The notes under the pieces: model-generated
Database searches by the model: none
What the model saw: the letters and a program-made list of their open reading frames with translations, nothing else
What the model was told of the DNA's origin: nothing
Part shown: piece after piece, positions 29,570-52,624 of the stretch
How positions within the stretch are numbered: position 1 is the stretch's first letter
Layout: each line of letters begins with the position of its first letter
Made by a program: the position numbers and the translations under genes
DNA from: Candidatus Tanganyikabacteria bacterium
GTDB taxonomy: Bacteria; Cyanobacteriota; Sericytochromatia; S15B-MN24; VGJW01
Direction: 5' to 3'
DNA length: 54,856 nt
Assembly: GCA_016867235.1 (NCBI GenBank)
Contig: VGJY01000007.1
Span: forward strand, 1 to 54,856

Positions 29570-29941
29570 ATGCCAAAGGTCCCCGCAGCCATCCTGGTAG
29601 CCTACGACTCCCCGGGCGGCGCCGTGGATGGCGTGGCCGACCGGGCGGCGATCACCTCCCGCGAGACCCGCACGACGCGGACGGTCCGCCCGATGCCTCG
29701 CGTTCCCGATCCGCTCGTGCAGGTCGCCCGGATCGCCTGGCTGTGCGTGAACGTACAGGCGCAGGATCGCCCGGTGGACACCCGCTGGCTGCGCAAGACG
29801 ATCGCGCGCATCGATCGCGACTTCGACCCCCACGCCGTGGGAGCCCGCAACTTCAACGAAGTCCTGGAGAGCCTCGAAAGGTGCGGGGTGGTGCGCATCC
29901 ACCGCGACAACGGCGTGGTCCGCGTCGCGCTGCCCGGCTAG
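29570..29941 (+). CDS. Small OST-HTH/LOTUS-like domain protein
   Basis: The 123-residue protein has GAGGAGG 7 nt before its ATG. From about residue 46 it follows the OST-HTH (LOTUS) pattern: a helix with LVQVARIAWLCVNVQ, then VDTRWLRKTIARIDRDFDPHAVGARNFNEVLESLERCGVVRIHRDNGVVRVAL. The FDPHAVGARNFNEVLESL segment corresponds to the conserved F-x-x-x-x-x-G-x-x-x-x-x-x-L core. OST-HTH domains bind RNA and usually sit behind NYN nucleases; here it is alone. It leads a plus-strand run into the DUF1822/sigma/protease module. Confidence 0.6.
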   Translation: MPKVPAAILVAYDSPGGAVDGVADRAAITSRETRTTRTVRPMPRVPDPLVQVARIAWLCVNVQAQDRPVDTRWLRKTIARIDRDFDPHAVGARNFNEVLESLERCGVVRIHRDNGVVRVALPG

Positions 29942-29962
29942 TTCGACAGGAGTCCGAATCCG

Positions 29963-30460
29963 ATGTGGCACCTCTGCTTCCCGACGCTGTTTCACCGGCG
30001 CTTGCCGTCGGCGAAGGGTCATCGGATACTTCGTGGGATTGCGAAAGGGCCAGCCAGGTTGCCGGACCGAGACGTTTTCACCGCATCGCCAGGGCCGCCT
30101 CGCGGCTTGACCCGCGAGCAGGCGCGGCTGGCGTACCCCGGCTGGCTCCGCGCTCTGGCGGGCGGCGCGGGCGACGACGCGCGAGTCGCGGCCGGCGAGG
30201 CGCTGCTGGGGTACGCAAGCCAGGTCGCCAGGAGCCGGCTGCAAAATGCGGTCCCGGGCATGCCCGCGGCGGAGCTCGCGGCGACGGTACGCGACTTCTC
30301 CTGGGCGCTCGCGCGCCACGAGGCAATCCATGGCGAGAAGCTTCCCGACCGCTTCGAGGGGTTCGAAGCCCTGCTGGCGGCGATCTTGCACGAATGCTGG
30401 CTCCGCCGCGGCGGCGCCGACCACGACGACCACGCTCAGATTCCGGACCCCCGGGCCTAG
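29963..30460 (+). CDS. Hypothetical helical protein
   Basis: The 165-residue ORF has AGGAG 10 nt before the ATG. It is not recognised. The N-terminal 50 residues look poorly structured; from about 50 on, Ala/Leu-rich helices predominate (EALLGYASQVARSRL, FEALLAAILHECWL). It fits between the OST-HTH and DUF1822 genes with short spacers, so it is probably part of that operon. No counterpart is seen in the second module copy. Confidence 0.45.
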   Translation: MWHLCFPTLFHRRLPSAKGHRILRGIAKGPARLPDRDVFTASPGPPRGLTREQARLAYPGWLRALAGGAGDDARVAAGEALLGYASQVARSRLQNAVPGMPAAELAATVRDFSWALARHEAIHGEKLPDRFEGFEALLAAILHECWLRRGGADHDDHAQIPDPRA

Positions 30461-30475: not shown

Positions 30476-31594
30476 ATGATGACCACGGTTTTCCGCATCG
30501 ATCCCGACCGCTGGGAGGCGCTGCGACGGGAAGCGGCGACATTCTCGACCGCCCCGGTTCGCAAGCGCGTGTTCGCCAACCTCCTTGCGCGAGAGGGGCT
30601 CTTGGCCTGGCTTGCGGCGCACGGTGCCGAAGCGCGGGCGGGGGACTCGTTCGCCGCCGACTCTACCGTCGCCGAGTTGCTCGACGTCTGCGATGTCCAC
30701 GTCGGCGCCCGGCGGATCAACGCGTGCCCGGTGCTGCCCGGCTCCAGGCGGGTGCTTGCCGACTTCCGGGCCCTCATGCACCGCTTCTATTCGGACGTCT
30801 ACGTCGCCGTGGGCCTGCGCGGCGACATCGCGACGGGCTCCGACGTGGAGGCCGAGATCCTGGGAGCGACGACGCCAGCGGTCTTCGACAATCACGGCAC
30901 GTGGGACGAGCGGGGCCACGCCGTGCTGGACCTCTCGGAGCTGACGCGGCTCGAACGGCCCGAAGACTTCGCCAGGTTTCCCGAGGCGGAACCCCCCGGG
31001 GAAATCTGGGCGTTCGAATGCGACGAGGTGCGGCCCCGGATCCCCGAGTACTGGAAGCGCCGCATCGATCCCGCCGCGATCCCCATGTTCGAGGCACACA
31101 TGCTCCATTGCGCGGATTGCCGGCAAGACGCGATCGGCGCCCGGTTGGCGGCCGAGGTCGATCCGCCCGGACGCAAGGCCGAAATCGTCTACTTCCCGGC
31201 CGCCCTGCTGCGCCGGACGGCCATGGCCGCGAGCACGGCGGAGCCGGCATCTTTCGCGATCTCGGGAGGAGACGACGAGATCCCGGCAGCGCGCGTGCCG
31301 GGCGAGGGCCCCTGGCTCACTTCGGATGGCCGCCTGGAGGGCGCGCTCGCCGTGGGAATGGAACACGCGGGCAAGACGGTACGCCTGACGCTGGCGCTCT
31401 CTTTCGGACCCGAAGGCGCCACCGAGCCCGCGTTCGACACGACGGTCACCGCCGGCGGGGGGGTACCGCTGGATCGCCGCCTGCAAGAGCCGGCAATCCT
31501 GGCCTGGCTCGGGGAGACAGGGCTCGCATGGCCCGACGGCCGCTGGGCTCTCGAGCCAGAGCACCTCGCGCTGGAGTTCGTCGGTGATGAGTGA
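30476..31594 (+). CDS. DUF1822-like protein with anti-sigma zinc motif (module A)
   Basis: The N-terminal 135 residues follow the DUF1822 pattern known from cyanobacteria (RVFANLLAREGLLAWLAAHG, then LLDVCDVHVGARRINACPVLP, then YVAVGL). A zf-HC2/ZAS signature comes next: H208-x3-C212-x2-C215 in EAHMLHCADCR, the motif of zinc anti-sigma factors. The C-terminal 100 residues form a beta-rich domain (TSDGRLEGALAVGMEHAGKTVRLTLALSFG in outline) shared with 46160-47398 and 48704-49240. No TM segment is present, so it is soluble. The next gene, overlapping by 8 nt, encodes a sigma-like protein. An anti-sigma role is inferred from motif plus neighbour. Confidence 0.72.
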   Translation: MMTTVFRIDPDRWEALRREAATFSTAPVRKRVFANLLAREGLLAWLAAHGAEARAGDSFAADSTVAELLDVCDVHVGARRINACPVLPGSRRVLADFRALMHRFYSDVYVAVGLRGDIATGSDVEAEILGATTPAVFDNHGTWDERGHAVLDLSELTRLERPEDFARFPEAEPPGEIWAFECDEVRPRIPEYWKRRIDPAAIPMFEAHMLHCADCRQDAIGARLAAEVDPPGRKAEIVYFPAALLRRTAMAASTAEPASFAISGGDDEIPAARVPGEGPWLTSDGRLEGALAVGMEHAGKTVRLTLALSFGPEGATEPAFDTTVTAGGGVPLDRRLQEPAILAWLGETGLAWPDGRWALEPEHLALEFVGDE

Positions 31595-32765
31595 GAGCGA
31601 GAGCCCGCAAAGCGCTCTCCGGATCGAGGGGATCCCCGGCGATCTCCCCGCGAAGCTGTCCGACCTGCTGGCGACCAACCAGCGCCTGTGCCGGGCAAGC
31701 GGCCTCACCGACGTCGCCCGCCGCAAGATGAAGTTCCAAGCGCTCGTCGGGGCGCTCGAGAAGAAGCGGGAGGCAGCGCGCAAGGAAGCCTGGGAGTGCA
31801 CCGACGGGGAGCGGCGCGGCGAGCCGGGGGCCCGGGAGCGCGCCGCGGATCGCCTGGGGGATGCGGCGCGGCTCGACGCCGAGTTGCACGCGGCGCGCCA
31901 GGAGCTGTCGCAGCTGCCAGCCTCGCTCCGGCAACTGCGAAAGCGCCCCGACATCGAGGCCGTGCGGTCGCAGATAGCCAGGCTCCTGGAGCCCTGGTGC
32001 GCCAGGTATCTCGCCGGGCGCAACGCGACCGAAGGCCGCGACTCCCAGAGCGCCAAGATCGGCGAGGCCGATCGGGCCGACCTGGTGGCGCTGTTGCAGG
32101 AGAAACTGGTCGTGGCCCTCGACGACTTCAATCCGCGGGCGACCGCCGGGGCGAGCGATCGACGATCGCCCGCCGATCCGGACAAGGCGGCCGGTCTGTT
32201 CCTGCTGGGCTGGTGCAAGACCGTCCTCAACAACCTGTCGCATGACTGGCGCATCGCCCGGGGCTTTCAGCCCAGGAAGTCGGAGGTGATAGACCCGGAG
32301 GACGGCAGCGTGGTGGTGCGCGAGTCGTGGCGGCCGCGCTGGGAGCAGGAACCTGCCCACGGCGAGGAGTATTCGCTGGATCAGTGGCTCGACCCGCAGG
32401 CGGCGGGAGACCAGGGCCGGGCGGTAGCGCAGACGCACCGGGCGCTGCTGCTCGAGGGCCTCGACCGGCACATCCGGGAAATCGACGCGCGCAAGCCCGG
32501 GCGCAAGTTGCGGGAGGTCCTCTACCTCGGAAAGATCCTGGGTTGGCGGCAGGCCGACATCGGCCGGCGAGTCGGCTGCGTCCAGTGCGAAGCGTCGAAG
32601 CGGTTCTGGGAAATGCTGTCCGCCATCGTAGCCTGGGTGAAGGCAGAAGACGCCGACTTCGCCAATCCCGCGGACCTCGACTGGCTGATCCACAACCTCG
32701 ACTGGTCAGACTTGCACGCCGCCATGCGCCTTGCTCCGCCGGTGAATGCGGGTGATCGCCCCTAG
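31587..32765 (+). CDS. Sigma-70-like regulatory protein (module A)
   Basis: The 392-residue protein starts at ATG 31587, overlapping the DUF1822 stop; a GTG at 31584 is possible. A charged coiled-coil-like N-terminus (about 40-110) precedes a segment with WCKTVLNNLSHDWRIARGF. The C-terminus has a sigma region-4-like helix-turn-helix: KLREVLYLGKILGWRQADIG, then RRVGCVQCEASKRFWEML. Family assignment rests on this HTH and on neighbours. Region 2 is diverged, so DNA binding is likelier than full promoter melting. It overlaps the protease-ATPase gene by 20 nt. Confidence 0.6.
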   Translation: MSESESPQSALRIEGIPGDLPAKLSDLLATNQRLCRASGLTDVARRKMKFQALVGALEKKREAARKEAWECTDGERRGEPGARERAADRLGDAARLDAELHAARQELSQLPASLRQLRKRPDIEAVRSQIARLLEPWCARYLAGRNATEGRDSQSAKIGEADRADLVALLQEKLVVALDDFNPRATAGASDRRSPADPDKAAGLFLLGWCKTVLNNLSHDWRIARGFQPRKSEVIDPEDGSVVVRESWRPRWEQEPAHGEEYSLDQWLDPQAAGDQGRAVAQTHRALLLEGLDRHIREIDARKPGRKLREVLYLGKILGWRQADIGRRVGCVQCEASKRFWEMLSAIVAWVKAEDADFANPADLDWLIHNLDWSDLHAAMRLAPPVNAGDRP

Positions 32766-35700
32766 CGCGAGGGTGGCGCGGCCCGACCTCGACGCCCTGG
32801 CCGATTACCTGGAGTGCCCCGGGCTCCCCTTCGACGGCTTGCGCGTGAGCTGGGAGCGCGCCCGCAGGTGCCCCCTTCCGGCAGAGGCCTGGCATGTCGC
32901 CAGGTCCTTGCTCGCGCTCTGCCCCGAAGTTGCCCGCGAACGGCTCGACGCGCTCGTGGCGGGAGCCGCCGACCTCCCCAGGCTGTTCCCGGCGGCGCTG
33001 GACTGGGACCGGCACTTCGGCCTGCGGCTCGCGCTCTGGGAACTCGCACGGGCCGAGGAGAGCGGCACCGAGCCTGTCGGGATTGCGGGCAACCCGCGGG
33101 CCTTCGAGTTTCGGGCCGGCGACCTGCTGGCGGCCCGCACCGCCGACGGATGGCTGGAAGAACGCGCTGGCATGCTGCTTGGTGGCGTCGAGACGGGTGT
33201 GCTCGCCACCCTCGGCGGCCACGGCCACTTCGAACCCGTGCGCCTGACCGCCTATCAGCCCCCGGTTTCGGCCGGCGCCGAGGCCGTCGGGATCCTGGGC
33301 GGCGGGCGGTGCGATCCGGCATTCCTGGCCGCGGCCGCGGAAGCCTGGGCGGCGGCCTGGGCCGCGGTCAGGCCCGGAGAGCCGGCGCCCGGGCTCGTGG
33401 TGTGGCTGGCGGCCGACGCCGCCCTGCGGGGCCGCTCGGCGGGCATGGTCTTCGCCGCGGCGGCCTGGGCGATCGCCCGGAAGCGGGATCTCGAGTGCGC
33501 CGCGTTCACCGGGGATTTCCGGGCCGGCAGATTCGCGAAGGTCGAGGGGATCGGCCCGAAGGCGCTGGCCGCGGAGGCCGCCGGGATGCGCTTCCTCTAC
33601 GTTCCGCAGGGCCTCAACGCCTTCCGGGCCGGCTCGTGCTTCCCCCGCGAAACCGTGGGCGTCGCGGGAATGGACGACCTCGTGTCGCGGCTCGATCACG
33701 AGCACCGGCAAGGGAGCGGCGATCTGGCGGCGCGCTGGGCGCCACCGCGCGCCGAGAGCCTGGCCTCCCTCGAGCGGCACCGGGATCCCTTCCCCTGGGA
33801 TCGCTTCGACCAGGTGGTGCCCGTGGACGTGGTCGCGGGAGAGGCGCGCGCCGACGCCCTGGATTGGCTGGCCTCGAGCACCGCGCACGTGCTGCTGGTG
33901 GGGCACGGCGGAGCGGGCAAGACCTCCCTTTTGGCATCAGCGGGATTGGCCGCGGTCTCCGGCGGCCGGACGGTCTACTTCCTCGAGGCCGGCACGTGGA
34001 TCGCGCCGGCGACCGGGCTCGCGCTCGTCGCATGGTGGCGCCGCGCCTCGCGAGACCTGGCGTGGCTCGTCGTGGATGGGCTCGACGAAGGCGGCTACCG
34101 GGACGAAGATCGATCGTGGCTTCCCGCCCTGCTCGCCGATCTCGCCGCGAGTTCGGCTCCCGGCTCACGCGTGATCCTCTCCAGCCGTCCCGACCGGTGG
34201 CGGGGCGGCGAAAGCCTGCAGCTCCAGGCGGCCGTGCGAAGGAGCTACGATCAAGCCGACGTCGCGTGCAGGCTGCCTGGCGATGCGCCCGAGGGCTGCA
34301 CGACGCCCCTGGCGTATCAGTGCTTCAAGTTCCTGGAGGCCACGCGGTTCGCGGCCGCCTCGCTGCCGCTCGGAGCTTTGCTGGCCGGCGTCGAGGGGCT
34401 GCTATGGGATCGCGAGGGTGCCCGGCGCGGATCCGCGGGCGATACGACCGACTGGCGGCGCCACGTGGGCGATCTCGCCCTGGGCATGGTGACGGCCGAC
34501 CGGCACGAACTTGGTCTGGCCGACCTTCCCGCGCAAGTGAAGCACTCCCGCGCGTTCTGGCAGCTCCCGTTCTTCAAGGCCGGCGCCGGCGGCCTGGCAT
34601 TCGCCGCGCCGCTCCTGCGGGACCACTTCGCTTCGGTGGAGCTCGAGCGCCGCGCCGCGGAGGGCCGGCACCTGCCCGACGTGTCGCCGCTCTCATGGGC
34701 CGATGCCCTGGGATTGCTCGCCGACCGCCGCCCTCCGGCACGGCGCGGAGCCCTCGCGGACCTCCTGGTTGCCGCCGCGCTGCACTTCCAGCGGCGCCGC
34801 GAACCCCGGCGGCGCGACGCCGTGGTGGCTCTGCTGCGGACCTGGGCGGGCAAGCTCGACGCGGCGCAGCTCGCGACCATGTCGCTGTGGGATGCCAAGG
34901 GCGCATACTACGGCGGACGGTACGGCGAGATGGCCGATCTGCTGCTCGAGGCCGGCCGGCTGCGCGACCTCGAGTCGTTTCCGGCCGTGGCCGCGCAGAT
35001 CGCGCAGCAGTTCGGCTCGGCCTTGCTGGATCTCAACGAGCTCCATGCCGCGCGGACGCTGCTAGACCTGGCGCAGCGCCTGATTCCGGACCACGAGGGG
35101 GTGCTCGCTTCGGAAATCGCCGGCACGGCGGGAAGGTTGGCCCTCAAGGAAGGCCAGGTCGCCGGGGCGATCGATTCGTTCGCGGCGAAGCTGCGGGCAC
35201 ATGCCGCCGCCGATCTGGCCGACCAGGTTTGCCGCGATCGCAACGACCTGGTCCTGGCGCTCGCGGTGGCGCTTCGCCTGGCCCCCCCCGGGGAGCGCCG
35301 GATCGCCGAGGATGGCCTGCGGGAAGCGTTCGGCAAGGCCCTGGCGTCCCACGAAGAGCTCCAGGCGGCCGGCTACGGGGATCAGGCCCTCAACGTCTCT
35401 TACCTCTACCGGAATCTGGCATGTGCGCTGCCGGCCGTTGCAGAGAGTCTCCGCTTCGGTGTCTGGGTCGCGACCACCGTCGAGGGCGGCCTCGCCTTCC
35501 TCGATCGCCACGGCCTGGCCGATCAGCCCGAGGCCGCTTTCATCGGCCTGCAGCTCGGCGCCCACTTGGCCGCGGCCGGCCGGGCGGATCGGGGAGCATC
35601 GTTGCTCGCGAATGCCCACGCCGCGCTGGCACGGGACCACTTCCGGCTGGAAGCGGCGTGCGCCGCCTACCTGCTGCAAGATCTGGGGCGGCCGGTCGAT

Positions 35701-35880
35701 CCGCTGGCTCACGTGGCCGACATGCGGGCGCAACGCGACCGGGTCTTCGCGGCCGCCGAGCGCTGGCTGGCGGGGGATCTGGAGGCGGACCCGCGCTTCT
35801 GGGAATCGCCGTGGGCTACCGGCAAGCGGCCGGAAGCGGGTTGGAGCGCGGCATTCCGGAAGCTGATCCTGTTCGAGTAG
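32746..35880 (+). CDS. Lon-type (S16) protease domain fused to STAND/NACHT-like ATPase (module A)
   Basis: The 1044-residue protein starts at ATG 32746, 20 nt inside the sigma-like gene. Residues about 210-300 match the Lon proteolytic domain: GRSAG with Ser231, TGDFRAGRFAKVEGIG, and GPKALAAEAAG with Lys272, the Ser/Lys dyad. A P-loop ATPase follows: Walker A GHGGAGKTS (386-394), Walker B WLVVDGLDE (440-448), and RVILSSRPDRW as the sensor strand, as in NACHT/STAND proteins. The rest (about 550-1044) is helical, TPR-like. Unlike Lon, the protease precedes the ATPase and the ATPase is not AAA+. I infer a signal-triggered protease; the target is unknown. Confidence 0.75.
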   Translation: MRVIAPSARVARPDLDALADYLECPGLPFDGLRVSWERARRCPLPAEAWHVARSLLALCPEVARERLDALVAGAADLPRLFPAALDWDRHFGLRLALWELARAEESGTEPVGIAGNPRAFEFRAGDLLAARTADGWLEERAGMLLGGVETGVLATLGGHGHFEPVRLTAYQPPVSAGAEAVGILGGGRCDPAFLAAAAEAWAAAWAAVRPGEPAPGLVVWLAADAALRGRSAGMVFAAAAWAIARKRDLECAAFTGDFRAGRFAKVEGIGPKALAAEAAGMRFLYVPQGLNAFRAGSCFPRETVGVAGMDDLVSRLDHEHRQGSGDLAARWAPPRAESLASLERHRDPFPWDRFDQVVPVDVVAGEARADALDWLASSTAHVLLVGHGGAGKTSLLASAGLAAVSGGRTVYFLEAGTWIAPATGLALVAWWRRASRDLAWLVVDGLDEGGYRDEDRSWLPALLADLAASSAPGSRVILSSRPDRWRGGESLQLQAAVRRSYDQADVACRLPGDAPEGCTTPLAYQCFKFLEATRFAAASLPLGALLAGVEGLLWDREGARRGSAGDTTDWRRHVGDLALGMVTADRHELGLADLPAQVKHSRAFWQLPFFKAGAGGLAFAAPLLRDHFASVELERRAAEGRHLPDVSPLSWADALGLLADRRPPARRGALADLLVAAALHFQRRREPRRRDAVVALLRTWAGKLDAAQLATMSLWDAKGAYYGGRYGEMADLLLEAGRLRDLESFPAVAAQIAQQFGSALLDLNELHAARTLLDLAQRLIPDHEGVLASEIAGTAGRLALKEGQVAGAIDSFAAKLRAHAAADLADQVCRDRNDLVLALAVALRLAPPGERRIAEDGLREAFGKALASHEELQAAGYGDQALNVSYLYRNLACALPAVAESLRFGVWVATTVEGGLAFLDRHGLADQPEAAFIGLQLGAHLAAAGRADRGASLLANAHAALARDHFRLEAACAAYLLQDLGRPVDPLAHVADMRAQRDRVFAAAERWLAGDLEADPRFWESPWATGKRPEAGWSAAFRKLILFE

Positions 35881-39558: not shown

Positions 39559-41172
39559 CTACCCGCCCGCCTCGCGCCGGGCGGAGCGCTCTCCCGCCCG
39601 CGGTACGGTCGCGCTGATTTCCCGGCCGGCAGCGGGTAATGTCGCCGGGCCGTCCCCGACTCGCGAACGGCCGGCCCAGAAGAGGCGGCCCGGCAGCCCG
39701 GGATCGGCGACCCGCACGAGGAGCAACGTCGAGATCAGCCAGACGCCCACCGGAATCAGGAACCAGGGACTGGTGTAGAAGGCTCCCTGGAAGTCGGAGT
39801 ACAGACCCAGGTTGGTGCCGAACAGCGCGAGCAACGCGCCGAAGGGGCCCAGGACCGACAGGAAGACGTTGAGGTTGCGGCTCGCGCGCGCTTGCAGATC
39901 GTCCGCCATTGCCCGCAATTGCTGCTCGACTTCGGTCGCCTCCTCGCGCGTCTCGTTGGCCAGATCGTCGAGGCCGAGGCGCGCCCGCAACAGACCGTAG
40001 AACTGTGCGTAGGGCGTGATGGCGCTGACCGTGTCGAAGCGGTGGTGCAGGTTGAAGTTGATCGTGCGAATGCGCAGCCGATTGACGCCTCGCCGAAACT
40101 CCTCGAAGCGGGCTGCGCCCCGCCTGTCGGCATCCTCGGGGACGAAGGGCAGCCGTCCCGCCTCGGCCGCGAGCATCAACGAGGCCGCTCGCTGGTGCAA
40201 TGCGAGCAGGTAGTGGGCGAAGTAGCTCGTCCGCGCCCGGTCGATGAACTCGTTCGAGAACTCGTGCCTCCACGCCGTCTCCAGGGTCGCGACGCCCTCG
40301 AGGGCGCAGCCATGGACCGAATGGCCGTAGTTCCGGACTATCTCGGGGCCGCGCTCGACGTCCAGGTCGGCCGCCAACGGCATGTAGCCTTCGTTGGCGA
40401 CTCGCCGCAGGAAGTACAGCGCCTCGCCGAAGCGCTCGAGCGGCTCGGGCTCGGCGAGCTGCGCGAAGGTCTGGACCTTGAATGCCCGCTCGTTGAGGAA
40501 CTCGACCCGCACGTCCGACAGGCCGGCCGCCTGCAGCAAGAGTTCGGCCACGTCGTGCAGGAAGAGGCCGGTGGGGTTCATCAGCAGCGCATACTCCGGC
40601 AATTCGGCCGCCTGCGTCAGATTGCGCTCATTTGGCCCTTCGCGCCTGATGAGCAGCTTCTGGGACCGATCGAGCCGCGAAACCGCGAAGTTGAAGCGCA
40701 CCAGGTCGCGAAGCGTGAGATCCTGCGATTCCCCGCCCCCGAGGCGCGCGCGCGGAGGCGGAACTCGAGCGTCAGTGCCGATGCCGGTCCCCTGGAAGAG
40801 ATGCACCAGGCCATTCGCCAGCGTGAAGCGATAGTCCTCCCGCGCCCTGACGTCGGGCTTCTTTACCCCGGCGAACCGCAGGTCGCCGCCGTACCACCGC
40901 GCCACCTCATGGGTCTCGACCAGGCGGTACGAAGGCGCCGCGAGCAGGTAGTTGCGAACCGATGGCAGGAAGAACTTGACCTCGTTCTCGCGGCTTGCAT
41001 CTTCCGGCCCGCGCACCCGCCAGAGGGGCCCGGACCCGAGCAGCCCGAGCGACGGATCGGTCGCGCTTCCCGGATCGAAGTGGAACACGCAGAAGATGCG
41101 CGTGAAATGGCGATCACGGCGAAGCGGCGCGTCCAGGGACGACGCGCCGCCAGCTTCCGGTTGGTCCGGCAA
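39559..41172 (-). CDS. Membrane protein with CorA-like C-terminus
   Basis: The 537-residue protein has a long soluble N-terminal part and long helices (about 330-420). Two closely spaced TM segments lie near the C-terminus (LNVFLSVLGPFGALLALFGTNL and FLIPVGVWLISTLLLVRV). The stalk helix plus TM1-loop-TM2 order and the FGTNL at the end of TM1 resemble CorA, whose signature is G-M-N; here Met is replaced by Thr. The N-terminal domain does not look like CorA. It is last in a four-gene run with the Clp-like ATPase and the YbjN-like pair. An ion-channel role is possible but weakly supported. Confidence 0.55.
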   Translation of the reverse strand: MPDQPEAGGASSLDAPLRRDRHFTRIFCVFHFDPGSATDPSLGLLGSGPLWRVRGPEDASRENEVKFFLPSVRNYLLAAPSYRLVETHEVARWYGGDLRFAGVKKPDVRAREDYRFTLANGLVHLFQGTGIGTDARVPPPRARLGGGESQDLTLRDLVRFNFAVSRLDRSQKLLIRREGPNERNLTQAAELPEYALLMNPTGLFLHDVAELLLQAAGLSDVRVEFLNERAFKVQTFAQLAEPEPLERFGEALYFLRRVANEGYMPLAADLDVERGPEIVRNYGHSVHGCALEGVATLETAWRHEFSNEFIDRARTSYFAHYLLALHQRAASLMLAAEAGRLPFVPEDADRRGAARFEEFRRGVNRLRIRTINFNLHHRFDTVSAITPYAQFYGLLRARLGLDDLANETREEATEVEQQLRAMADDLQARASRNLNVFLSVLGPFGALLALFGTNLGLYSDFQGAFYTSPWFLIPVGVWLISTLLLVRVADPGLPGRLFWAGRSRVGDGPATLPAAGREISATVPRAGERSARREAGG

Positions 41173-42104: not shown

Positions 42105-42119
42105 CGTTTTCCCGCCTTT

Positions 42120-44404: not shown

Positions 44405-44926
44405 ATGGGGATCAGCTTCGACCAGCTTACGACTCGACTCTACCTCGGGTCATTGCCGTGCGAGCCAATCGACGTGTCGATCTTGCGGGAGCACTTGATG
44501 GTCACGCATGTCGTGGCGGTTTGCGCCGAGCGCCCGCGGGAAGTGCTCGCCGCGTTGTTGGGCGATTCGGGACGTTTCTTCAGCTACGTGCCGATCATCG
44601 AAGCTTCCCCGGACCCCGCCCTGCTGCGGCGCGCGGTCCTGGCGGTCGAGGCGGCGCTAGGGGCGGGACCCGCCCAGACCGTTTACCTCCACTGCTGGCT
44701 CGGGCGCCACCGCTCGGCGGCCGTGGCCGCGGGCTTGCTCGTGCGGCAAGGCCTGTTCAAGACGTTCTCGCAGGCCCACGGGTTCCTGCGGGAGCGCCGG
44801 CCGGAGGTCCAGCCGATCGAGCTGGGAGAGGCGTTCGCGGTCATGATCCAGGTACTGGCGAACGACATGGACTTCAGGTTCCCCGCCCGCGGCGGGGCGA
44901 CCCTCGTCGGGGATCTGCTGAAATAG
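44405..44926 (+). CDS. Dual-specificity / tyrosine phosphatase-like protein
   Basis: The 173-residue protein has the C-x5-R signature HCWLGRHRS (96-104) with Cys97 and Arg103, and a plausible general acid Asp70 in IEASPD. The N-terminal part (TRLYLGSLP) is typical of small dual-specificity phosphatases. It would act by Cys-phosphate catalysis on phosphoproteins or other phosphoesters. It diverges from the Clp-like operon across 122 nt and is followed at 27 nt by a helical-repeat gene. Start codon context is weak. Confidence 0.8.
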   Translation: MGISFDQLTTRLYLGSLPCEPIDVSILREHLMVTHVVAVCAERPREVLAALLGDSGRFFSYVPIIEASPDPALLRRAVLAVEAALGAGPAQTVYLHCWLGRHRSAAVAAGLLVRQGLFKTFSQAHGFLRERRPEVQPIELGEAFAVMIQVLANDMDFRFPARGGATLVGDLLK

Positions 44927-44953
44927 CATCGATCCGCCGGCCGTCTCTTCCGT

Positions 44954-46159
44954 GTGAAGGGCAAGGTGCGGCGCCGTCTGCTCGAGGGGCTCGTCGGGCG
45001 GGACTCGCAACTGGGCGCGCAGGCCAGGGAGGCCGCAATCCGCGAGTTGCTGGCCGACGGCTCCGCGGCGGCGGCCGGCCTCCTGGCCGGCGCGGCCATC
45101 GCGATTCCCGATCGGGCCATCGCCGCGCGACTGCTCGCCGCCGCCGGCCTGCTGCAGCGACAGGAGGCCGTCGACGAGGTCTGCCGCCTCTGGTACCGAA
45201 CGGGCGATCCGCGCCTGCGCCGGTTGATCTTCGAGAGGGGCTGGATCGCGTCCCCACGGGTCGAAGGTACGCTCGAGACCGCTCTGGTCGTGGCGGAATC
45301 CCCGGCGCAGCGCATCTCGAACCGCCGCCTGGCCACCGCGCTGCTGCGCCTTGCCAGGTCCCCGGACGACGCGGATCGGGAGGCCGCCCTTTCTCACCTC
45401 CGGGCGCTCCCGCCGGGGTCGGCGCAGGACGAGGTGAGCATCCATGCCCTGGAAGGCGACGCTTTCGCCATGTCAATCGCGCGGGCCGCCGGCTATCAGC
45501 CTCTCGCGCAAGATGCCCGCGTCGCGTTCTTCCTTCTGGCGGGCCGCGCGGGCGAGTGCGCCGCGCTCGACCCGCGCGGGGACGCCTTGGCCAGTTACCT
45601 CGGCTGGGCGGGCCCCGCCGCCATCGACGCGGTGCTGGATGCGGCCTGGGCCGCCGACCCGTCGCTGCTGTTCCGCGCGGTCGGAGCCGGTGCCGGCCCG
45701 GATCGATCCACTCTCGTCCCGGTCCCGAGGGCGCGCGGCTGCGATCACCTCTGGTCCGCCCTGTTCAAGATCCCGCTCGGGCCGGCCGCGCGCGTCGTCG
45801 TCCTGGCTTCCCGCGCCGGCCATCCCCCGGCGGATCCGGAGGCGGGCCCGGCGTTGGCACGGCTTTCGCCGCTCGCCTGCCAGGCGCTCGACCTCCAGCC
45901 CTACCCCTCGGCGTCCATTGCGCCCGAAAGTCCCGAGTGGCCGGCGACTCGCCTGGCCACCGAGCCGCTCGAACGCATCGGGCCCCGCGACCTGCGCCAG
46001 CTCAGGGCACATTTCGAGAAGTTCCCCGCCGGCAGGGCGCACGGGGCGTGGCTGCGCCTGCTCGTAGCCCTGGCAGCCTGGGGCAATCGGCACGAAGTGG
46101 CTATCGCCTCAGCGGGCGAGGCGCCGCGCGGGCCGCACGATTGCGGCCTGGAGCCCTGA
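44954..46159 (+). CDS. Helical-repeat (HEAT-like) protein
   Basis: GTG start; 401 aa. Ala/Leu/Arg-rich helical pairs recur (AREAAIRELLADGSAAAAGLLA, RLLAAAGLLQRQEAVDEVCRLW in outline), as in HEAT or Armadillo repeats, over about the first 250 residues. The remainder is less regular. No catalytic motif is visible. It sits behind the phosphatase gene and meets the DUF1822-like gene stop-to-stop (TGA immediately followed by TCA). A scaffold role is the most that can be said. Confidence 0.55.
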   Translation: MKGKVRRRLLEGLVGRDSQLGAQAREAAIRELLADGSAAAAGLLAGAAIAIPDRAIAARLLAAAGLLQRQEAVDEVCRLWYRTGDPRLRRLIFERGWIASPRVEGTLETALVVAESPAQRISNRRLATALLRLARSPDDADREAALSHLRALPPGSAQDEVSIHALEGDAFAMSIARAAGYQPLAQDARVAFFLLAGRAGECAALDPRGDALASYLGWAGPAAIDAVLDAAWAADPSLLFRAVGAGAGPDRSTLVPVPRARGCDHLWSALFKIPLGPAARVVVLASRAGHPPADPEAGPALARLSPLACQALDLQPYPSASIAPESPEWPATRLATEPLERIGPRDLRQLRAHFEKFPAGRAHGAWLRLLVALAAWGNRHEVAIASAGEAPRGPHDCGLEP

Positions 46160-47398
46160 TCAGGTCGACGCTTCGAAGCGCAACTCGCCGGGTCCGACGG
46201 CCAGCCGGCCGACCGCGGCCAGGTCCTCGGCCAGGGCCTGGGTCAGCGCTCCGTCCGCCAGGTCGTGGTCGAGTTCGACGACGGCTCCGGAGACCGTCGC
46301 GGGGAATCGCTCGACGACCTGGCCGCCCAGCACCAGTTCGGCCGTCAGCTGCCGCAGTGCCGCCACCTCGCTCGCGGCGCCCTCGAGGAACAGCCGGCCC
46401 TCGACCCGCCCCTCGGCGGTCAGACATGGGCCTCGCGCCGCGTCGGCCGGGGCGCGTATCGTCAGGCCGGTGGCGCCGGCTACGGGGTAGGTGCCGTGCT
46501 CGGCCGAACTGGCCGAAGCCCTTCCCGCCAGGCCGCGCACGGCCAGCGCGGCGGCCAGGTCTATCACCGCCCGCTCGTCCTGCGCCCGGAACTCGGCCTC
46601 TTGCAGATCGAGCGAGCCGGCTCGCTCAGCCTTCCGCAGCGCGATGAAGCGTCGCCTGCAGGTTGCGCATGCCAGCAAGTGAGCTTCGAAGAGGTCATGC
46701 GCCTCGATCGGGACGCGCCACGCCTCCGGGGGCAAGCTCTCCCAGGCATCGGAGGCCGCATGCCGCCCGGCGCCCGGCACGCCCGTCGGCAATCGCAGCG
46801 CGTCGCGCAGGTAATCCCCGAGCTTCGGAAACACCTCCTCGTGGGCGAGCGCTCCCGGCGGCGGATCGACGCCGGCCGGCGGTTCGGCCAGCAGGGCCGC
46901 GAAGGCGGTGGGCGGCAGGACGGCCGCCGCCGGCAGGTCGAAGTACAGGCCCGTCGCCACGCGATGGCGCCCTTCTTTCACGAACTCCCGGTTTCTCGCC
47001 AGCCCGACGAGCGTGCCCCCGTCGAGGGCGTCGGTCAGCTCCACGAATGCATAGAGATCGGCGTGATACCCGTAATTCAGGGCTCGCCAGTCCACGCGCG
47101 GCCGGCGGCCCTCGCCGGGCATGAGCGCGGAGACGCCCACGCGCCGGCCGGCGATCCAGACGTCGCAGACATCGAGCACCTCGACGACATCCGGCGCATC
47201 AGCGTAGGCGGCCTCTTCCACTACCTCGAACCCGCTATCGGCGGCCCAGTCGAGGAATACCTGGCGTGCCAGGCGATTGGCGAGGACGCGCTTGCGGACC
47301 TCCGGGATGCTGAAAGTCGCGGCCACGGCGCGCGCCGCGTCCCGGGCCCCCTGGCCGATGGGCAGAAAGGGCGACTGCGAAGCGTCTGCGATGGTCAT
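46160..47398 (-). CDS. DUF1822-like protein with anti-sigma zinc motif (module B)
   Basis: The 412-residue paralogue of the 30476-31594 protein has DUF1822-like N-terminal sequence (RKRVLANRLARQVFLDWAAD, then VVEVLDVCDVWIAGRRVGV) and the zinc signature H240-x3-C244-x2-C247 in FEAHLLACATCRRR. The shared C-terminal beta domain begins near LTAEGRVEGRLFL. The family usually lacks this zinc finger as far as I know. It lies 9 nt after the sigma-like gene, in the order sigma then anti-sigma, opposite to module A. Soluble. Confidence 0.7.
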   Translation of the reverse strand: MTIADASQSPFLPIGQGARDAARAVAATFSIPEVRKRVLANRLARQVFLDWAADSGFEVVEEAAYADAPDVVEVLDVCDVWIAGRRVGVSALMPGEGRRPRVDWRALNYGYHADLYAFVELTDALDGGTLVGLARNREFVKEGRHRVATGLYFDLPAAAVLPPTAFAALLAEPPAGVDPPPGALAHEEVFPKLGDYLRDALRLPTGVPGAGRHAASDAWESLPPEAWRVPIEAHDLFEAHLLACATCRRRFIALRKAERAGSLDLQEAEFRAQDERAVIDLAAALAVRGLAGRASASSAEHGTYPVAGATGLTIRAPADAARGPCLTAEGRVEGRLFLEGAASEVAALRQLTAELVLGGQVVERFPATVSGAVVELDHDLADGALTQALAEDLAAVGRLAVGPGELRFEAST

Positions 47399-47407
47399 GG
47401 CCGAATC

Positions 47408-48550
47408 CTAATCGTACTTCCATTCACCGTATCGATGGCTGGCGATCCAGGCCTGCCGGACCCGCTCGCGAATGCGCTCCAGGCGGTGCCTCACTTCGGT
47501 CTCGGGCAGATTCAGATCGTCCGCGACAGCTGCGATCGAGAATCCGGCACGGAACTGCCACGCCCATAGCCAGATGTCGCGATGATCGATTCCCCGCGCC
47601 GCAATCTGGCGACCCTCGTGAAGCAGAAAGCGCAGGAACTCGATCACGCGCAAGCGGCGATGGTTGACGAATGTCTGGCTGAAGGGCTGGATCTTGCCGT
47701 CCGGGCCTGCCCGCCCCACGCCAGCCGCAAGCGCCGCTCCGATCGCGGCGTCCGTCACCTTCTCCTGGCCGGCGAGCCCGTCCAGGTAGAGCTCCCAGAT
47801 CCGCGGGTAGTAGGTCTGCGGCCTGGCGTCCCACGCCTCCAGCAGCCAGACCAGCTCCCGGGACTGGAGCCACAGCAACTCCTGGCGCGCCTTTTCGTCC
47901 TCCGCCTCCTCCCCCGCGTCGGGTAGCGACCCGAACTCGCTGCGGTAGCCGGACGCGTGGTCGCCGGCCAGGTCCCCCGGCACGGTCGAGTGCGGCTCGA
48001 CGCGCGCCTGCCGGGTCTCCACCACCGCGCCGGCCGCGTTCGTGTGAGTCTTGGCCGTCGCCCCGCACTTCGTCAGGTAGGACTGGAAGACCTGCACCGC
48101 ATGCGGACGCCGCAACCAGTTGGCCAGGGCGTCGCCACTCGAGCGACTGAAGCTGGGAAGGTAGCGGATCAGGCGGGCGAACACCTCCGAGGCGAGCTGG
48201 GCGGCGCCTTCGTCGTCGAGGGGAGCGTCCCAGACCCAGCAACCCCGGAGGAAATCCTCGGCAGCACCGCTGTAGCGCAGCCAGAGGTCCCAGATGCAAG
48301 GGCAGTCCCGGAGAGCTTCCCAGCGCTCGGCCCCCTCCCCGTCCATCCGTCCCCGGTGGAGGGCGGCCCAATCGACGTCGCCGCCGAACGCCGCGATCAG
48401 CCTGTCTCGCTCGGACAGGGCACCTGCGAGCAGATCCTGGAAGGAGGGCGTGGCGGGGGCGGGCATGGTGTGCTGGAACGAGCTCCGGCGACCGGTTGCG
48501 TGGCTGCCGGAAATGGTACGGAGAGATCTCCCGTTCTTCAATCCCGTCAT
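47408..48550 (-). CDS. Sigma-70-like regulatory protein (module B)
   Basis: The 380-residue protein starts at ATG 48550, preceded by AGGAGG with a short 4-nt spacer; an ATG at 48466 is an alternative without a ribosome site. The middle region has LASEVFARLIRYLPSF and a segment like sigma region 2. The C-terminus carries a region-4-like HTH (FSIAAVADDLNLPETEVRHRLERIRERVRQAW), clearer than in module A. Overall similarity between the two sigma-like proteins is low; position and HTH link them. It precedes the DUF1822/zinc protein by 9 nt. Confidence 0.65.
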   Translation of the reverse strand: MTGLKNGRSLRTISGSHATGRRSSFQHTMPAPATPSFQDLLAGALSERDRLIAAFGGDVDWAALHRGRMDGEGAERWEALRDCPCIWDLWLRYSGAAEDFLRGCWVWDAPLDDEGAAQLASEVFARLIRYLPSFSRSSGDALANWLRRPHAVQVFQSYLTKCGATAKTHTNAAGAVVETRQARVEPHSTVPGDLAGDHASGYRSEFGSLPDAGEEAEDEKARQELLWLQSRELVWLLEAWDARPQTYYPRIWELYLDGLAGQEKVTDAAIGAALAAGVGRAGPDGKIQPFSQTFVNHRRLRVIEFLRFLLHEGRQIAARGIDHRDIWLWAWQFRAGFSIAAVADDLNLPETEVRHRLERIRERVRQAWIASHRYGEWKYD

Positions 48551-48650
48551 CGGCCCTCCTGATTCCGCCTGTTTCGGCGGTCTCCTTCAAGACCTCAACG
48601 ACCGACCGCTCCTCGTTATTCCGGGAATGGACAGGTGGGGTCGGACGTTA

Positions 48651-48679
48651 TTGCCTCGAGCCGCCGGGCGGTGGATAAT
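48651..48679 (+). promoter_or_regulatory. Sigma-70-type promoter for the 48704 gene
   Basis: TTGCCT (48651-48656), a 17-nt spacer and GATAAT (48674-48679) make a good housekeeping-type promoter in otherwise GC-rich DNA. Transcription would start near 48686, followed by AAGGAGG and the ATG at 48704. Confidence 0.65.
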
Positions 48680-48703
48680 CGCTTGCAGACAAGGAGGACG
48701 GCA

Positions 48704-49240
48704 ATGCCCGACGTTCCCGCGGTGCCCGAGACCGGAGCCGGCGTGGCCGACGCTGCCCGGGAAGCGCCTCGCCACTTCGAGGCGGTTCCGGCGTCGAGCA
48801 ATCATGATGGCGAAGGGTTGGCCGCCGACATCCTCTTCCTGCTGCGCCGGCTCCCCATCGTTCGAGCCTTTCGGGCGCTGGCGGGCTACGAGGCCGCTTC
48901 GGCCATGACCGTCACGCTGTTCCGGCGCGACGGCCGGGAGGACGCGATCGATCTGCCGGCATCCCCCGAGAAGCGGCCGCACCTGACCCACGAGGGCCGG
49001 CTGCGGGCGACCCTCGCCCTGCCGGATCCGGCGCTGGCCGGCCAGCGCCTGCTCGTCGCGCTGTCGCTGGACTTCGACGGTGTCAAGGCCGAACCTGTGG
49101 TGGTCGTCGCCGGCGACTCGGCGCTCGCGATCGATTGCCAGATGGCGCCGCCCGAGGTGGGGCAGTGGCTCGCCGCGAACCTGGCGCCCGGAGCGCGCCT
49201 GGTCGTTCCACCCGCGACATTTGGCTTGCTGGCCCTGTAG
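48704..49240 (+). CDS. Stand-alone version of the DUF1822-partner C-terminal beta domain
   Basis: The ATG at 48704 has AAGGAGG 7 nt upstream; 178 aa. After a variable N-terminus, residues about 95-178 (LTHEGRLRATLALPDPALAGQ, then LLVALSLDFDG) align with the C-terminal domains of both DUF1822/zinc proteins here (TSDGRLEGALAV and TAEGRVEGRLFL). It thus carries that domain without the DUF1822 and zinc parts. It lies between the module B sigma-like gene and protease gene, on the opposite strand to both, with its own promoter. It could compete for a common partner. Its stop touches the stop of the protease gene. Confidence 0.6.
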   Translation: MPDVPAVPETGAGVADAAREAPRHFEAVPASSNHDGEGLAADILFLLRRLPIVRAFRALAGYEAASAMTVTLFRRDGREDAIDLPASPEKRPHLTHEGRLRATLALPDPALAGQRLLVALSLDFDGVKAEPVVVVAGDSALAIDCQMAPPEVGQWLAANLAPGARLVVPPATFGLLAL

Positions 49241-52200
49241 CTAGCCCGCCAGGACCTTTCGTAGCACCCAATCGGGGAGTTCGGGGCCGGCGGGAGGCAC
49301 CGCCAGGTCTGGATCCCGAGGGAGAGATTCGGCGGCGGGCCACAGCCCGGTGACGCGCAGCCAGCGAGTGGCCCCCGCGATGACGCACTCCCGCTGGCTC
49401 CGGAAGTCGGCGAGCACCTCCGCGGATCCGAGCGAACCGGGTTCACCTGCAAGCTGCTCGAGCAAGGCGAGCATCCCGAACTCGTGGAGCCGATACCCCG
49501 GGGTCAGCGACCTGAAAATCTCGTAGGCAGCTCCGAAATCGGCCTCGGCAAGCGGACTCTCGCCGCTCGCCATGAGCGTGAGACCGCGATTGGCCAGGAG
49601 GAACGCCCGGCACGTCGGGGGGAGCCAGCGGGCGCCGGCCGGATCGCCCAGAAGCTCGTCGACCCGCGCCCTGATCCAGGCGGCCTGGCCCACCATGCCG
49701 CGGCGAGACAGTTCGGGCAGCAGGGCGGAGAGGTACGCGTCCAGATAGCTCGCTCCGGCGGCCGTGGGCGTCTCGAGCCGCCTGGCAAGCTCGCGATGGT
49801 CGCCGCTTACCTTGGCGGCCGCGGCCTCCAGATCGGCGAGCGCGGCCGTGATGTCGCCGGACGTCTCGTTCCGCAGGCGCTCCGCCAAGCGCAGCGCGTC
49901 GATGCGCACCAGGTCGATCGCGTCCCTTGCGGCGTCGTCGTGGCGGTGCTGGAGCGCGTGCCCCCGGCGCTTTCGCGCCGCCAGCACGGCTGCAGCGTCG
50001 ACCTTCCCGGTCTCGGCAAGCAAGGTCGCGCGCGTGCCCTCGCGGGCATGCCGGTTGCGATCCCCGCGGGCATCCCTGCCGATGGCATCGGCTTTGTCGA
50101 GGCAAGCCAGCGCCAGGGCGGGAGCCTTCACCCGCCACAGGCACAGGGCCAGCTGGTGCGCCGCCCAGGCCTTGTCCCGCGCTTCCAGATCCTCGAAGGG
50201 CACGGTGGCCAGCACTTCGCAGCACTCGACCAGGTGCCCGGTGTAGTACAGATCGGACGCGGGAATGAGCGCGCACGACGCCGCTTTCGCCGGCCCGGCC
50301 AGGTCGCGCGGCGTCCGGGGGTCCCGCGCGGAGCAGGGCCGGGAGAAGCGCTCGGCGACGCGATGGTGGAGCGGCCGATCGTGGGCGCGGATGCAGTGGG
50401 GCAATGCCTCGATCAGGATGTCGACGTGCTTGTCTGCCCAGACCTCTCCCAGCAGCAACTCGGCCGCCTGCAGGATCGGCCCGCGCCAGCGCGTCGACTC
50501 GAGCCCGGGTGGCAAGCGCTCGGGACCTTCCAGGAGGTGCCGCGCCGCGAAATGATCGCGGACGACGACGCTGCCGAAGCGCGGCGCGCCGGAACGCTGA
50601 TCCAGTAGCCGCAGCTCGAGCAAGGCCTCGCGCAGCGAATCGGGAAAGTCGGCCGGCCATACCAGGTCGGCGCGCGCCTCGCCGCGCAGCACCTCCTCGT
50701 AGGCGAGGGTCCGCAGGACCGTCGTACACCGGTCCACGTCGGCGTCCGGCAGATCCTTCTTCTTGTCGCGCGCGTAGCGCCATACCAAGTCGACGACTTC
50801 CGAGAGCAGGCCTGCCGGCCCCTCGATGTTGCGCGGGAGCGCGAAGCGGTAGCACTGGGCCAGGAAGGGCGTCGTGCAGTAATCCGGCAGGTCGCCCCCC
50901 GGACCAAGGGCGCTGGCGGACTGGCGCGGGTCGAAAGCCATCCAGACCCAGTCGACTTGCTCGCGCGCGAACGCGCGCGTCTCGAGCGCGCGCACCGCCG
51001 CCGGGCGACTCGCGATCAGCAACTTGCCGCGCCCGTGGCTGGCGGATAGCAAGCGCACCACGAAATGCGCGAGCTCGGCCGCGCGGTCGGCAAAGCGGGG
51101 GGCCTCGTCGAGGCCGTCAAGGAGCAGGCAGGGGGGCTCCGGTGAGATCGCCAGCTGGTACACCCACCACTGGGCTATGCGCTCCAGGCTCTCGGACGAA
51201 CCCAGGTGCCGGCCCTCCAGGTGATAGACCGGGAGGCGATCGGCCAGCTGGGCGCCCGCCATCAGCACGCTCCAGGACTTGCCGCTCCCGCCGTCGCCCA
51301 GGACCAGGACGGTCCCGGGCTCGCTTGTCGCAAGCAGCTTCACGACCTCTCGCCCCTCCCGGTCGGCGAGCGTCATCTCCCGATCGGCGCCCGGCTCCCC
51401 GGGCATCCACGGAAACGTCCAGCGGCGCCGCAACAGTGCCTCCCGGGCCAGCGGCTCGAGATCGGGGACCGGGCCGTGCGGGACGCCGGCCGACGGCGCC
51501 TTCCAGAGACCCGCGAGATCCTCCACGGTGTCGATCGGTGCGACACCGGATTCGCCAAACGGCCCGCTGGCCTCGATCTGATTGTCCCGGGGCACCGCCA
51601 GCCTCACGACGCCCAGTTCCCGCGAGGCGGCCGCCTTGTCCCAGACATGCCAGACGCTCCCCACCGTGCCGTCCCCCGCCACGGCGCCGGTAAGGGCCAG
51701 GTCGGCCGGGACACTCTCCCCGCGGCCGATCGCCAGGCCAGCCGCGGCTGCGGCCAGGCCGATCGAGTTACCACTGTAACTCCCCCCGTCCAGCAAGCGC
51801 GGGAGGTAGACCACCAGCACCGGCGGGGCCTTGCTGGTCCCTCTGGGCCTTGCATGCCGCCAACCTGCCAGCCAGCCCGTCAGGACGGCCTCGCGGAACT
51901 CGGCCTCCAGGTTGACAATCGGGCACCCGGCCCAGATCGCCGGCGGGTCGCCGGGGCCCGCCTCGAAGGCGCTGAAGCGCAAGCGTTCGAGCTTGCCGGC
52001 CTTGAACCCGCCGGGCGCCGGGACCGCGAAGAGCGCGTTGACGGTGGCCGAGCCCAGGCGCTGCCGGCCTTGCCGCAACCAGGCCAAGGGAGCGCGGCCA
52101 TCATCGGCTCTCATCGGCGACTTCCACTCGGAGGCCTCCAGCAGCACGCCCGGATCCCGCACGAGGGGCCACAGCAGGTGCCCGGCCGGGTCGGAGGCGG

Positions 52201-52624
52201 GATCGCGCTCGAGGTGATCCTCGAGCACACCCAGTGCCCACAGACCGCGCCTTGCCTGCAAGTCGCCCAGCCACCTCGCATTCGGGTCCACGTCCGGACG
52301 GCGTCCGGGATCCCGAGGAAGCAGCAGCGTGCCGTGCGACAGTTCCGCCTCGAACCGTTGCAGGTTCCTCACCCGGGCCTCCAGGCGCGCCCACCCCGCA
52401 CTGCCGGGCCGGCGATGCGCCGGATCGAGCTGCTCCCATTCCCTGGCGATCGTGCCCCACACGTCGGCCGGCGCGGAGTAGTGGCCGGATGCGACGTCCA
52501 GCGCCAGGGTCGTCAGCGCGCGCCCACCTGAATCGGAGCGACAGATCCACCCGCCCACGAGCCTCACGAGGTCGAGTCTGTGCGCGGATGTCGTGGCCGT
52601 TACCTGGTCCCCCTCGCACCACAT
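49241..52624 (-). CDS. Lon-type (S16) protease domain fused to STAND/NACHT-like ATPase (module B)
   Basis: I choose the ATG at 52624 (GGAG 8 nt upstream; ATG 52651 is an alternative), giving 1127 aa. The Lon-like domain (about 265-365) has GNSIGL with Ser287, LTGAVAGDGTVGSVWHV and WDKAAASRELG with Lys330, keeping the Ser/Lys dyad. The ATPase has Walker A GDGGSGKS (443-450), Walker B CLLLDGLDEAPRF and KLLIASRPAAV. A long helical, TPR-like C-terminus follows. The N-terminal 260 residues differ from module A. It diverges from the WD40 gene with a 56-nt gap and converges stop-to-stop with the small beta-domain gene. Confidence 0.75.
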   Translation of the reverse strand: MWCEGDQVTATTSAHRLDLVRLVGGWICRSDSGGRALTTLALDVASGHYSAPADVWGTIAREWEQLDPAHRRPGSAGWARLEARVRNLQRFEAELSHGTLLLPRDPGRRPDVDPNARWLGDLQARRGLWALGVLEDHLERDPASDPAGHLLWPLVRDPGVLLEASEWKSPMRADDGRAPLAWLRQGRQRLGSATVNALFAVPAPGGFKAGKLERLRFSAFEAGPGDPPAIWAGCPIVNLEAEFREAVLTGWLAGWRHARPRGTSKAPPVLVVYLPRLLDGGSYSGNSIGLAAAAAGLAIGRGESVPADLALTGAVAGDGTVGSVWHVWDKAAASRELGVVRLAVPRDNQIEASGPFGESGVAPIDTVEDLAGLWKAPSAGVPHGPVPDLEPLAREALLRRRWTFPWMPGEPGADREMTLADREGREVVKLLATSEPGTVLVLGDGGSGKSWSVLMAGAQLADRLPVYHLEGRHLGSSESLERIAQWWVYQLAISPEPPCLLLDGLDEAPRFADRAAELAHFVVRLLSASHGRGKLLIASRPAAVRALETRAFAREQVDWVWMAFDPRQSASALGPGGDLPDYCTTPFLAQCYRFALPRNIEGPAGLLSEVVDLVWRYARDKKKDLPDADVDRCTTVLRTLAYEEVLRGEARADLVWPADFPDSLREALLELRLLDQRSGAPRFGSVVVRDHFAARHLLEGPERLPPGLESTRWRGPILQAAELLLGEVWADKHVDILIEALPHCIRAHDRPLHHRVAERFSRPCSARDPRTPRDLAGPAKAASCALIPASDLYYTGHLVECCEVLATVPFEDLEARDKAWAAHQLALCLWRVKAPALALACLDKADAIGRDARGDRNRHAREGTRATLLAETGKVDAAAVLAARKRRGHALQHRHDDAARDAIDLVRIDALRLAERLRNETSGDITAALADLEAAAAKVSGDHRELARRLETPTAAGASYLDAYLSALLPELSRRGMVGQAAWIRARVDELLGDPAGARWLPPTCRAFLLANRGLTLMASGESPLAEADFGAAYEIFRSLTPGYRLHEFGMLALLEQLAGEPGSLGSAEVLADFRSQRECVIAGATRWLRVTGLWPAAESLPRDPDLAVPPAGPELPDWVLRKVLAG

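What the first reader, a model, noticed from the sequence alone, without database searches (positions are those of the whole stretch)
29570..52624. Duplicated module: sigma-like protein, DUF1822/zinc anti-sigma-like protein and Lon-protease/STAND ATPase
The same three-part set occurs twice, at 30476-35880 (+) and 46160-52624 (-), with different gene order and strong divergence. Both copies keep the H-x3-C-x2-C zinc motif, the sigma-like HTH, the Lon Ser/Lys dyad and the P-loop. In cyanobacteria DUF1822 is found beside sigma-like genes, but I know of no report joining it to a Lon-type protease on a STAND ATPase. Independent retention of all parts suggests one functional system, perhaps a stress, immunity or programmed-death switch.
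Basis: partly seen in the sequence, partly recalled or inferred. Interest (0 to 1): 0.92.

Follow-up and report, generated by a model that had tools for sequence, protein, structure and literature searches.

The report
Duplicated STAND-Lon protease/anti-sigma/sigma gene module
Two old, very different copies of a gene set lie side by side in one cyanobacterium-related genome and pair a probable sensor-controlled protease with a probable transcription-factor inhibitor and its transcription factor; the likely switch (cut the inhibitor, free the factor) resembles two CRISPR-linked systems but has no CRISPR part and seems undescribed in this form.

Summary
Two divergent copies (27-31% identity) of a gene set lie at 30476-35880 (+) and 46160-52624 (-): (1) a protein with a DUF1822 N-terminal domain plus a zinc anti-sigma motif; (2) a sigma-like protein; (3) a Lon-like Ser/Lys protease domain on a STAND/NACHT ATPase with a helical C-terminus. 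Lon, P-loop and DUF1822 features are statistically supported in both copies; the zinc ligands are kept in both. The sigma assignment is weak (copy B) to marginal (copy A), and those two proteins are not detectably homologous. Copy B also holds a fourth, related gene (48704-49240, +). In 40 sampled cyanobacterial DUF1822 loci the usual set is sigma-DUF1822, often with a CHAT (caspase-like) protease; none has Lon or the zinc motif. The window's genome has no CHAT gene. No other genome searched has the Lon-STAND protein. Best reading: a CRISPR-free system with the logic of CalpL/CalpT/CalpS and Csx29/Csx30/CASP-sigma, in which a STAND-gated Lon protease cuts a zinc/DUF1822 anti-sigma factor and frees a sigma factor. 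Binding, cleavage, trigger and regulon are inferred, not shown. New variant of a known kind.

The parts
29570..29941 (+). P0011, small protein (123 aa), possible first gene of the copy A operon; winged-helix-like tail by eye, no family hit
   Evidence: 22-nt gap to the next gene, AGGAGGG ribosome site; no Pfam hit
29963..30460 (+). P0008, 165 aa, unknown, probable operon member of copy A
   Evidence: 16-nt gap to P0001; no Pfam hit; not sigma-like by shuffle test
30476..31594 (+). P0001, copy A DUF1822/zinc protein (372 aa), probable anti-sigma factor
   Evidence: zf-HC2 1.4e-5, DUF1822 3.3e-4; shuffle test
31019..31123 (+). zf-HC2 zinc anti-sigma motif of P0001 (residues 182-216, C...HMLHCADC)
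31584..32765 (+). P0002, copy A sigma-like protein (393 aa), marginal
   Evidence: overlaps P0001 by 11 nt and P0003 by 20 nt; shuffle test z 4.1/2.9; no family hit
32746..35880 (+). P0003, copy A Lon-STAND protein (1044 aa)
   Evidence: NACHT/nSTAND5 7.5e-4/3.2e-4; Lon profile 0/4000 shuffles
33403..33630 (+). Lon-like catalytic region of P0003 (Ser231, Lys272)
33901..33924 (+). Walker A of P0003 (GHGGAGKT)
46160..47398 (-). P0004, copy B DUF1822/zinc protein (412 aa), probable anti-sigma factor
   Evidence: DUF1822 8.3e-6 above cut-off; HLLACATC
46658..46681 (-). HxxxCxxC of P0004 (residues 240-247)
47408..48550 (-). P0005, copy B sigma-like protein (380 aa)
   Evidence: ECF 0.0032; region 4 0.0013, region 2 0.043; AGGAGG ribosome site upstream
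48704..49240 (+). P0007, extra gene sharing the C-terminal domain of P0001/P0004, divergent from the sigma-like gene and convergent with the Lon-STAND gene
   Evidence: BLASTP 6e-5 and 1e-4; AAGGAGG ribosome site before ATG 48704
49241..52624 (-). P0006, copy B Lon-STAND protein (1127 aa from ATG 52624; frame open to 52744)
   Evidence: spore Lon C 5.3e-4, Lon_C 0.0073, NACHT 0.033; 0/4000 shuffles for Lon
51563..51787 (-). Lon-like catalytic region of P0006 (Ser287, Lys330)
51275..51298 (-). Walker A of P0006 (GDGGSGKS)

Best explanation
Each copy is a sensor-gated proteolytic sigma switch. At rest the zinc/DUF1822 protein holds the sigma-like protein inactive (inferred). An unknown trigger is sensed by the helical C-terminal part of the Lon-STAND protein; ATP-driven STAND assembly brings its N-terminal Lon-like Ser/Lys domains together and activates them (inferred from domain order). 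The protease cuts the DUF1822/zinc protein, the sigma-like protein is freed, and a local or wider response is transcribed (inferred). It works like CalpL/CalpT/CalpS and Csx29/Csx30/CASP-sigma, but with a STAND ATPase in place of a CRISPR signal, and it appears to be a Lon version of the cyanobacterial sigma-DUF1822-CHAT set. Shown by sequence: domain make-up, catalytic, zinc and ATP motifs, duplication, operon layout. Not shown: binding, cleavage, trigger, regulon.
For: Zinc anti-sigma motif fused to DUF1822 in both copies. Lon dyad in register with canonical Lon in both copies. STAND P-loop and DGLDE box. Sigma-like partner adjacent. Same logic in 40 cyanobacterial loci: sigma directly upstream of DUF1822 in 32, CHAT protease directly downstream in 16, both in 9, with CHAT fused to nSTAND1, CHASE2, HEAT or TPR. 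The own genome has DUF1822-like genes only here and no CHAT gene. Published precedents for a protease cutting a sigma inhibitor, one Lon and one CHAT (PMC11417357, PMC10028731).
Against: The sigma assignment of P0002 is marginal and P0002/P0005 are not alignable. Both copies are in one genome, so co-occurrence is n = 2 and they share ancestry. No structure or interaction test: both folds were too poor (pLDDT 66 and 39). Lon could be inactive or aimed at other substrates.
Confidence: 0.5

Rival explanations
1. Cell-death effector under sigma control: the Lon-STAND protein is itself a toxic effector that degrades many cell proteins after sensing invasion, and the sigma/anti-sigma pair only controls expression of the locus.
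For: N-terminal enzyme, STAND, C-terminal helical repeats is the usual layout of STAND immune effectors (general knowledge of the family); the neighbourhood holds other conflict-type genes such as TerY/PP2C/vWA.
Against: In characterised Lon or CHAT systems with a sigma/inhibitor pair next door the inhibitor is the substrate (PMC11417357, PMC10028731). PADLOC finds only weak Lon hits.
Confidence: 0.2
2. Non-proteolytic switch: the Lon-like fold is a docking or oligomerising scaffold, and the STAND protein controls the sigma/anti-sigma pair by binding alone.
For: The Lon similarity is short (about 66 residues) and weak in family libraries; canonical Gly-Pro-Ser-Ala-Gly became Gly-Asn-Ser-Ile-Gly / Gly-Arg-Ser-Ala-Gly.
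Against: Both catalytic residues are kept in two copies with only 27% identity overall.
Confidence: 0.15
3. Redox or metal sensing zinc anti-sigma pair with an unrelated neighbouring Lon-STAND gene; the trio is neighbourhood, not a system.
For: zf-HC2 anti-sigmas often sense redox by zinc release (established for the RsrA type); only one genome is known.
Against: The trio is kept twice with overlapping or touching genes (copy A overlaps of 11 and 20 nt) and in rearranged order (copy B); the DUF1822-protease pairing recurs in cyanobacteria.
Confidence: 0.1

Closest known systems
Cyanobacterial ECF sigma + DUF1822 + EACC2/caspase (CHAT) neighbourhoods (Kaur et al. 2021, PMC8195603)
   Same: Sigma-like gene next to a DUF1822 gene and a protease domain on variable sensor parts, in some cases a STAND ATPase (L063 ORF: CHAT + nSTAND1)
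   Different: Protease is CHAT, not Lon; DUF1822 proteins there lack the HxxxCxxC motif (0 of 40); the DUF1822 match here is only the N-terminal 90-150 residues
CalpL/CalpT/CalpS of type III CRISPR (PMC11417357)
   Same: Lon-type Ser/Lys protease, anti-sigma factor and ECF sigma in one locus
   Different: CalpL is switched by cA4 through a SAVED domain; here a STAND ATPase and no CRISPR genes in the window. CalpT homology was not tested
Csx29/Csx30/CASP-sigma of type III-E CRISPR (PMC10028731)
   Same: Protease cleaves a sigma inhibitor to start transcription
   Different: CHAT protease with RNA-guided activation
Zinc anti-sigma factors (zf-HC2, RsrA type)
   Same: C/H...HxxxCxxC motif; P0001 passes the family cut-off
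   Different: Fused to a DUF1822 N-terminal domain and a C-terminal domain shared with P0007; no membrane anchor was looked for
TY/ter stress island neighbours (TerY-PP2C-vWA)
   Same: Present in the same window (21933-26995)
   Different: Separate gene set; no link shown

Membership tests
DUF1822 (PF08852) | Profile score above curated cut-off | tested here: inconclusive
   P0004 25.5 bits (cut-off 25); P0001 20.3 bits; match limited to the N-terminal 90-150 residues
zf-HC2 zinc anti-sigma (PF13490) | C/H...HxxxCxxC and score above cut-off | tested here: met
   P0001 25.5 bits, cut-off 22.2. P0004 keeps the ligands but has an insert and does not reach the cut-off
Sigma-70/ECF | Regions 2 and 4 detectable | tested here: inconclusive
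   P0005 sub-threshold hits to both regions; P0002 no hits, shuffle test only; fold of P0002 uninformative
Lon (S16) protease domain | Ser/Lys dyad in register and profile similarity | tested here: met
   0 of 4000 shuffles, dyad aligned in both; scores stay below curated cut-offs
Lon (S16) protease domain | Lon-type AAA+ module in the same chain | tested here: not met
   ATPase is NACHT/STAND-like and lies C-terminal of the Lon domain, so it is not an ATP-dependent Lon, only a Lon-domain protein
STAND/NACHT ATPase | P-loop, hhhhDGLDE box, family similarity | tested here: met
   (scores below Pfam cut-offs)
CalpL/T/S | SAVED domain and type III CRISPR locus | tested here: not met
   No SAVED match outside the Lon region of P0006 in PADLOC; no CRISPR genes among the window genes examined
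sigma-DUF1822-CHAT set | CHAT protease partner | tested here: not met
   No CHAT gene in the whole genome

The most novel reading that the evidence does not exclude
A CRISPR-independent immune or stress relay in which a STAND ATPase sensor directly gates a Lon-type protease that cuts a zinc/DUF1822 anti-sigma factor, so that CHAT and Lon are interchangeable proteases in a general sensor-protease-anti-sigma-sigma design that type III CRISPR later, or separately, adopted.
Probability: 0.4. Interest if true: 0.78.

Novelty: new variant of a known kind. Interest (0 to 1): 0.62.

Why it matters
If true, it shows that the protease-cuts-anti-sigma immune relay known from two CRISPR systems also exists with a STAND (NLR-like) sensor, that Lon and CHAT can swap in the same slot, and it gives DUF1822, a family found in 154 of 244 genomes sampled in the phylum and with little described function, a testable role as an anti-sigma factor.

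Tried and rejected
P0002-P0005 homology: BLASTP, shuffles and profile searches all negative; the 33% in the forced alignment is an artefact. Structure: P0002 alone gave pLDDT 66 with the sigma part below 50, and its PDB fold search returned only coiled-coil look-alikes; Lon-STAND gave pLDDT 39 and was not searched. Outside homologues: two GTDB pattern scans and plasmid tblastn found none; the pattern scans demand exact short matches and can miss distant relatives. Weak hits of the Lon-STAND profile in other genomes of the phylum mostly lie on the Lon stretch, and eight of nine such loci were confirmed as ordinary Lon proteases. Mis-binning: GC matches the own contigs; tetranucleotide profile of the module ends is at the low edge of own windows (0.756-0.758 against a 5% point of 0.767), so a horizontally gained island is possible but foreign contamination is not indicated. 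Shared promoter motif between the copies: looked at by eye, nothing convincing.

Full report
Setting. The window is contig C7 (54,856 bases) of a 6.1 Mb, 514-contig genome with 100% completeness and 2.26% contamination. Its phylum looks like Cyanobacteriota: many sampled relatives are 1.7-2.3 Mb genomes and DUF1822 is in 154 of 244 of them. The name of the class is not given; only 18 genomes of it are held. GC (0.69-0.71) matches the genome's other contigs.

The two copies. Copy A (+): P0001 DUF1822/zinc 30476-31594, P0002 sigma-like 31584-32765, P0003 Lon-STAND 32746-35880, with overlaps of 11 and 20 nt, probably in one operon with two small genes before it (29570-29941, 29963-30460). Copy B (-): P0006 Lon-STAND 52624-49241, P0005 sigma-like 48550-47408, P0004 DUF1822/zinc 47398-46160. 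Between P0006 and P0005 lies P0007 (+, from ATG 48704, with AAGGAGG before it), which shares the C-terminal domain of P0001 and P0004. That domain occurs nowhere else in the genome above noise.

DUF1822/zinc protein. The two copies are 31% identical (2e-27). Their N-terminal 90-150 residues match DUF1822; no shuffled sequence of 3000 does as well, and a profile comparison with 40 cyanobacterial DUF1822 proteins gives 1.8e-7. P0001 also carries zf-HC2 above its cut-off, the motif of zinc anti-sigma factors; P0004 keeps HxxxCxxC and has His where P0001 has the first Cys, with an insert between. None of the 40 cyanobacterial DUF1822 proteins has HxxxCxxC or even CxxC.

Lon-STAND protein. The copies are 27% identical (2e-16). 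A profile of canonical Lons from the phylum, seven of the eight from the window's class, scores P0006 at 21.9 and P0003 at 19.4 bits; the best of 4000 shuffles reach 4.8 and 6.8. The catalytic Ser and Lys are aligned. The ATPase carries GxGGxGK[ST] and DGLDE and weak NACHT/nSTAND5 similarity. The C-terminal third is predicted helical in a poor model with a weak TPR hit. The order enzyme-STAND-helical repeats is the usual one for STAND effectors (general knowledge).

Sigma-like protein. P0005 has sub-threshold matches to sigma regions 2 and 4 in the right order. P0002 matches no family; against 21 DUF1822-partner sigmas its C-terminal part scores z 4.1 and its middle z 2.9 over shuffles, with three control fragments at -0.5 to 1.8. 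P0002 and P0005 show no similarity to each other. 'The same three-part set' therefore rests on position and size for this member.

Comparison set. In 40 cyanobacterial DUF1822 loci, chosen mostly among the strongest family matches, a sigma-like gene lies directly upstream in 32, a CHAT gene directly downstream in 16, both in 9. Ten neighbours were scanned with Pfam: sigma region 4 above the cut-off in two of three upstream genes; CHAT with TPR, HEAT, nSTAND1 or CHASE2 in six of seven partner candidates, the seventh being a CheA-type kinase. No ORF in these loci matches Lon. Kaur et al. 2021 (PMC8195603) already described ECF sigma and DUF1822 genes beside caspase-domain proteins.

Distribution of the Lon form. 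The two-sequence profile finds only the two copies at high score in 339 genomes of the phylum and none in 391 genomes of another order, partly overlapping the first set. The DUF1822/zinc profile finds only the own genome in the class. The own genome has no CHAT gene. Plasmids and GTDB pattern scans gave nothing. Co-occurrence is thus two copies in one genome.

Mechanism. The best-supported reading is a protease-released sigma switch: STAND senses, Lon is activated, the DUF1822/zinc anti-sigma is cut, sigma acts. Two published CRISPR systems work this way, with Lon (CalpL cleaves CalpT, freeing CalpS; PMC11417357) and with CHAT (Csx29 cleaves Csx30, freeing CASP-sigma; PMC10028731). Here a STAND ATPase would replace the CRISPR signal. 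Domain content is shown; binding, cleavage, trigger and targets are inference.

Verdict. Observation partly confirmed, interpretation partly supported, new variant of a known kind, interest 0.62.

Noticed in passing
window 21933-26995: TerY-type vWA with TerY_C, PP2C-type phosphatase and a second vWA, a ter-type stress/conflict gene set next to the module.
   Followed up: partly
window 11196-19944: Flagellar/chemotaxis cluster on the minus strand; FlhB confirmed by Pfam, FliR/FliQ/FliP/CheY/FliM/MotA read by eye from translations.
   Followed up: partly
window 39559-41172: CorA-like protein by PADLOC (1.9e-11), no Pfam hit; CorA-like proteins accompany some type III CRISPR systems, but none is seen here.
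   Followed up: no
window 41178-44282: Clp/Hsp100-like double AAA protein followed by two TY-Chap/YbjN chaperone-like genes.
   Followed up: no
window 44405-46159: Dual-specificity-phosphatase-like gene (sub-threshold) and a 401-aa protein without family hit, convergent with copy B.
   Followed up: no
window 52681-54735: WD40-repeat protein transcribed divergently from the copy B Lon-STAND gene; possible sensor or target, not tested.
   Followed up: no
window 38522-38610: tRNA-Ala call on the minus strand inside a long coding frame; probably a false positive.
   Followed up: no
L070: Cyanobacterial locus with two DUF1822 matches close together.
   Followed up: no
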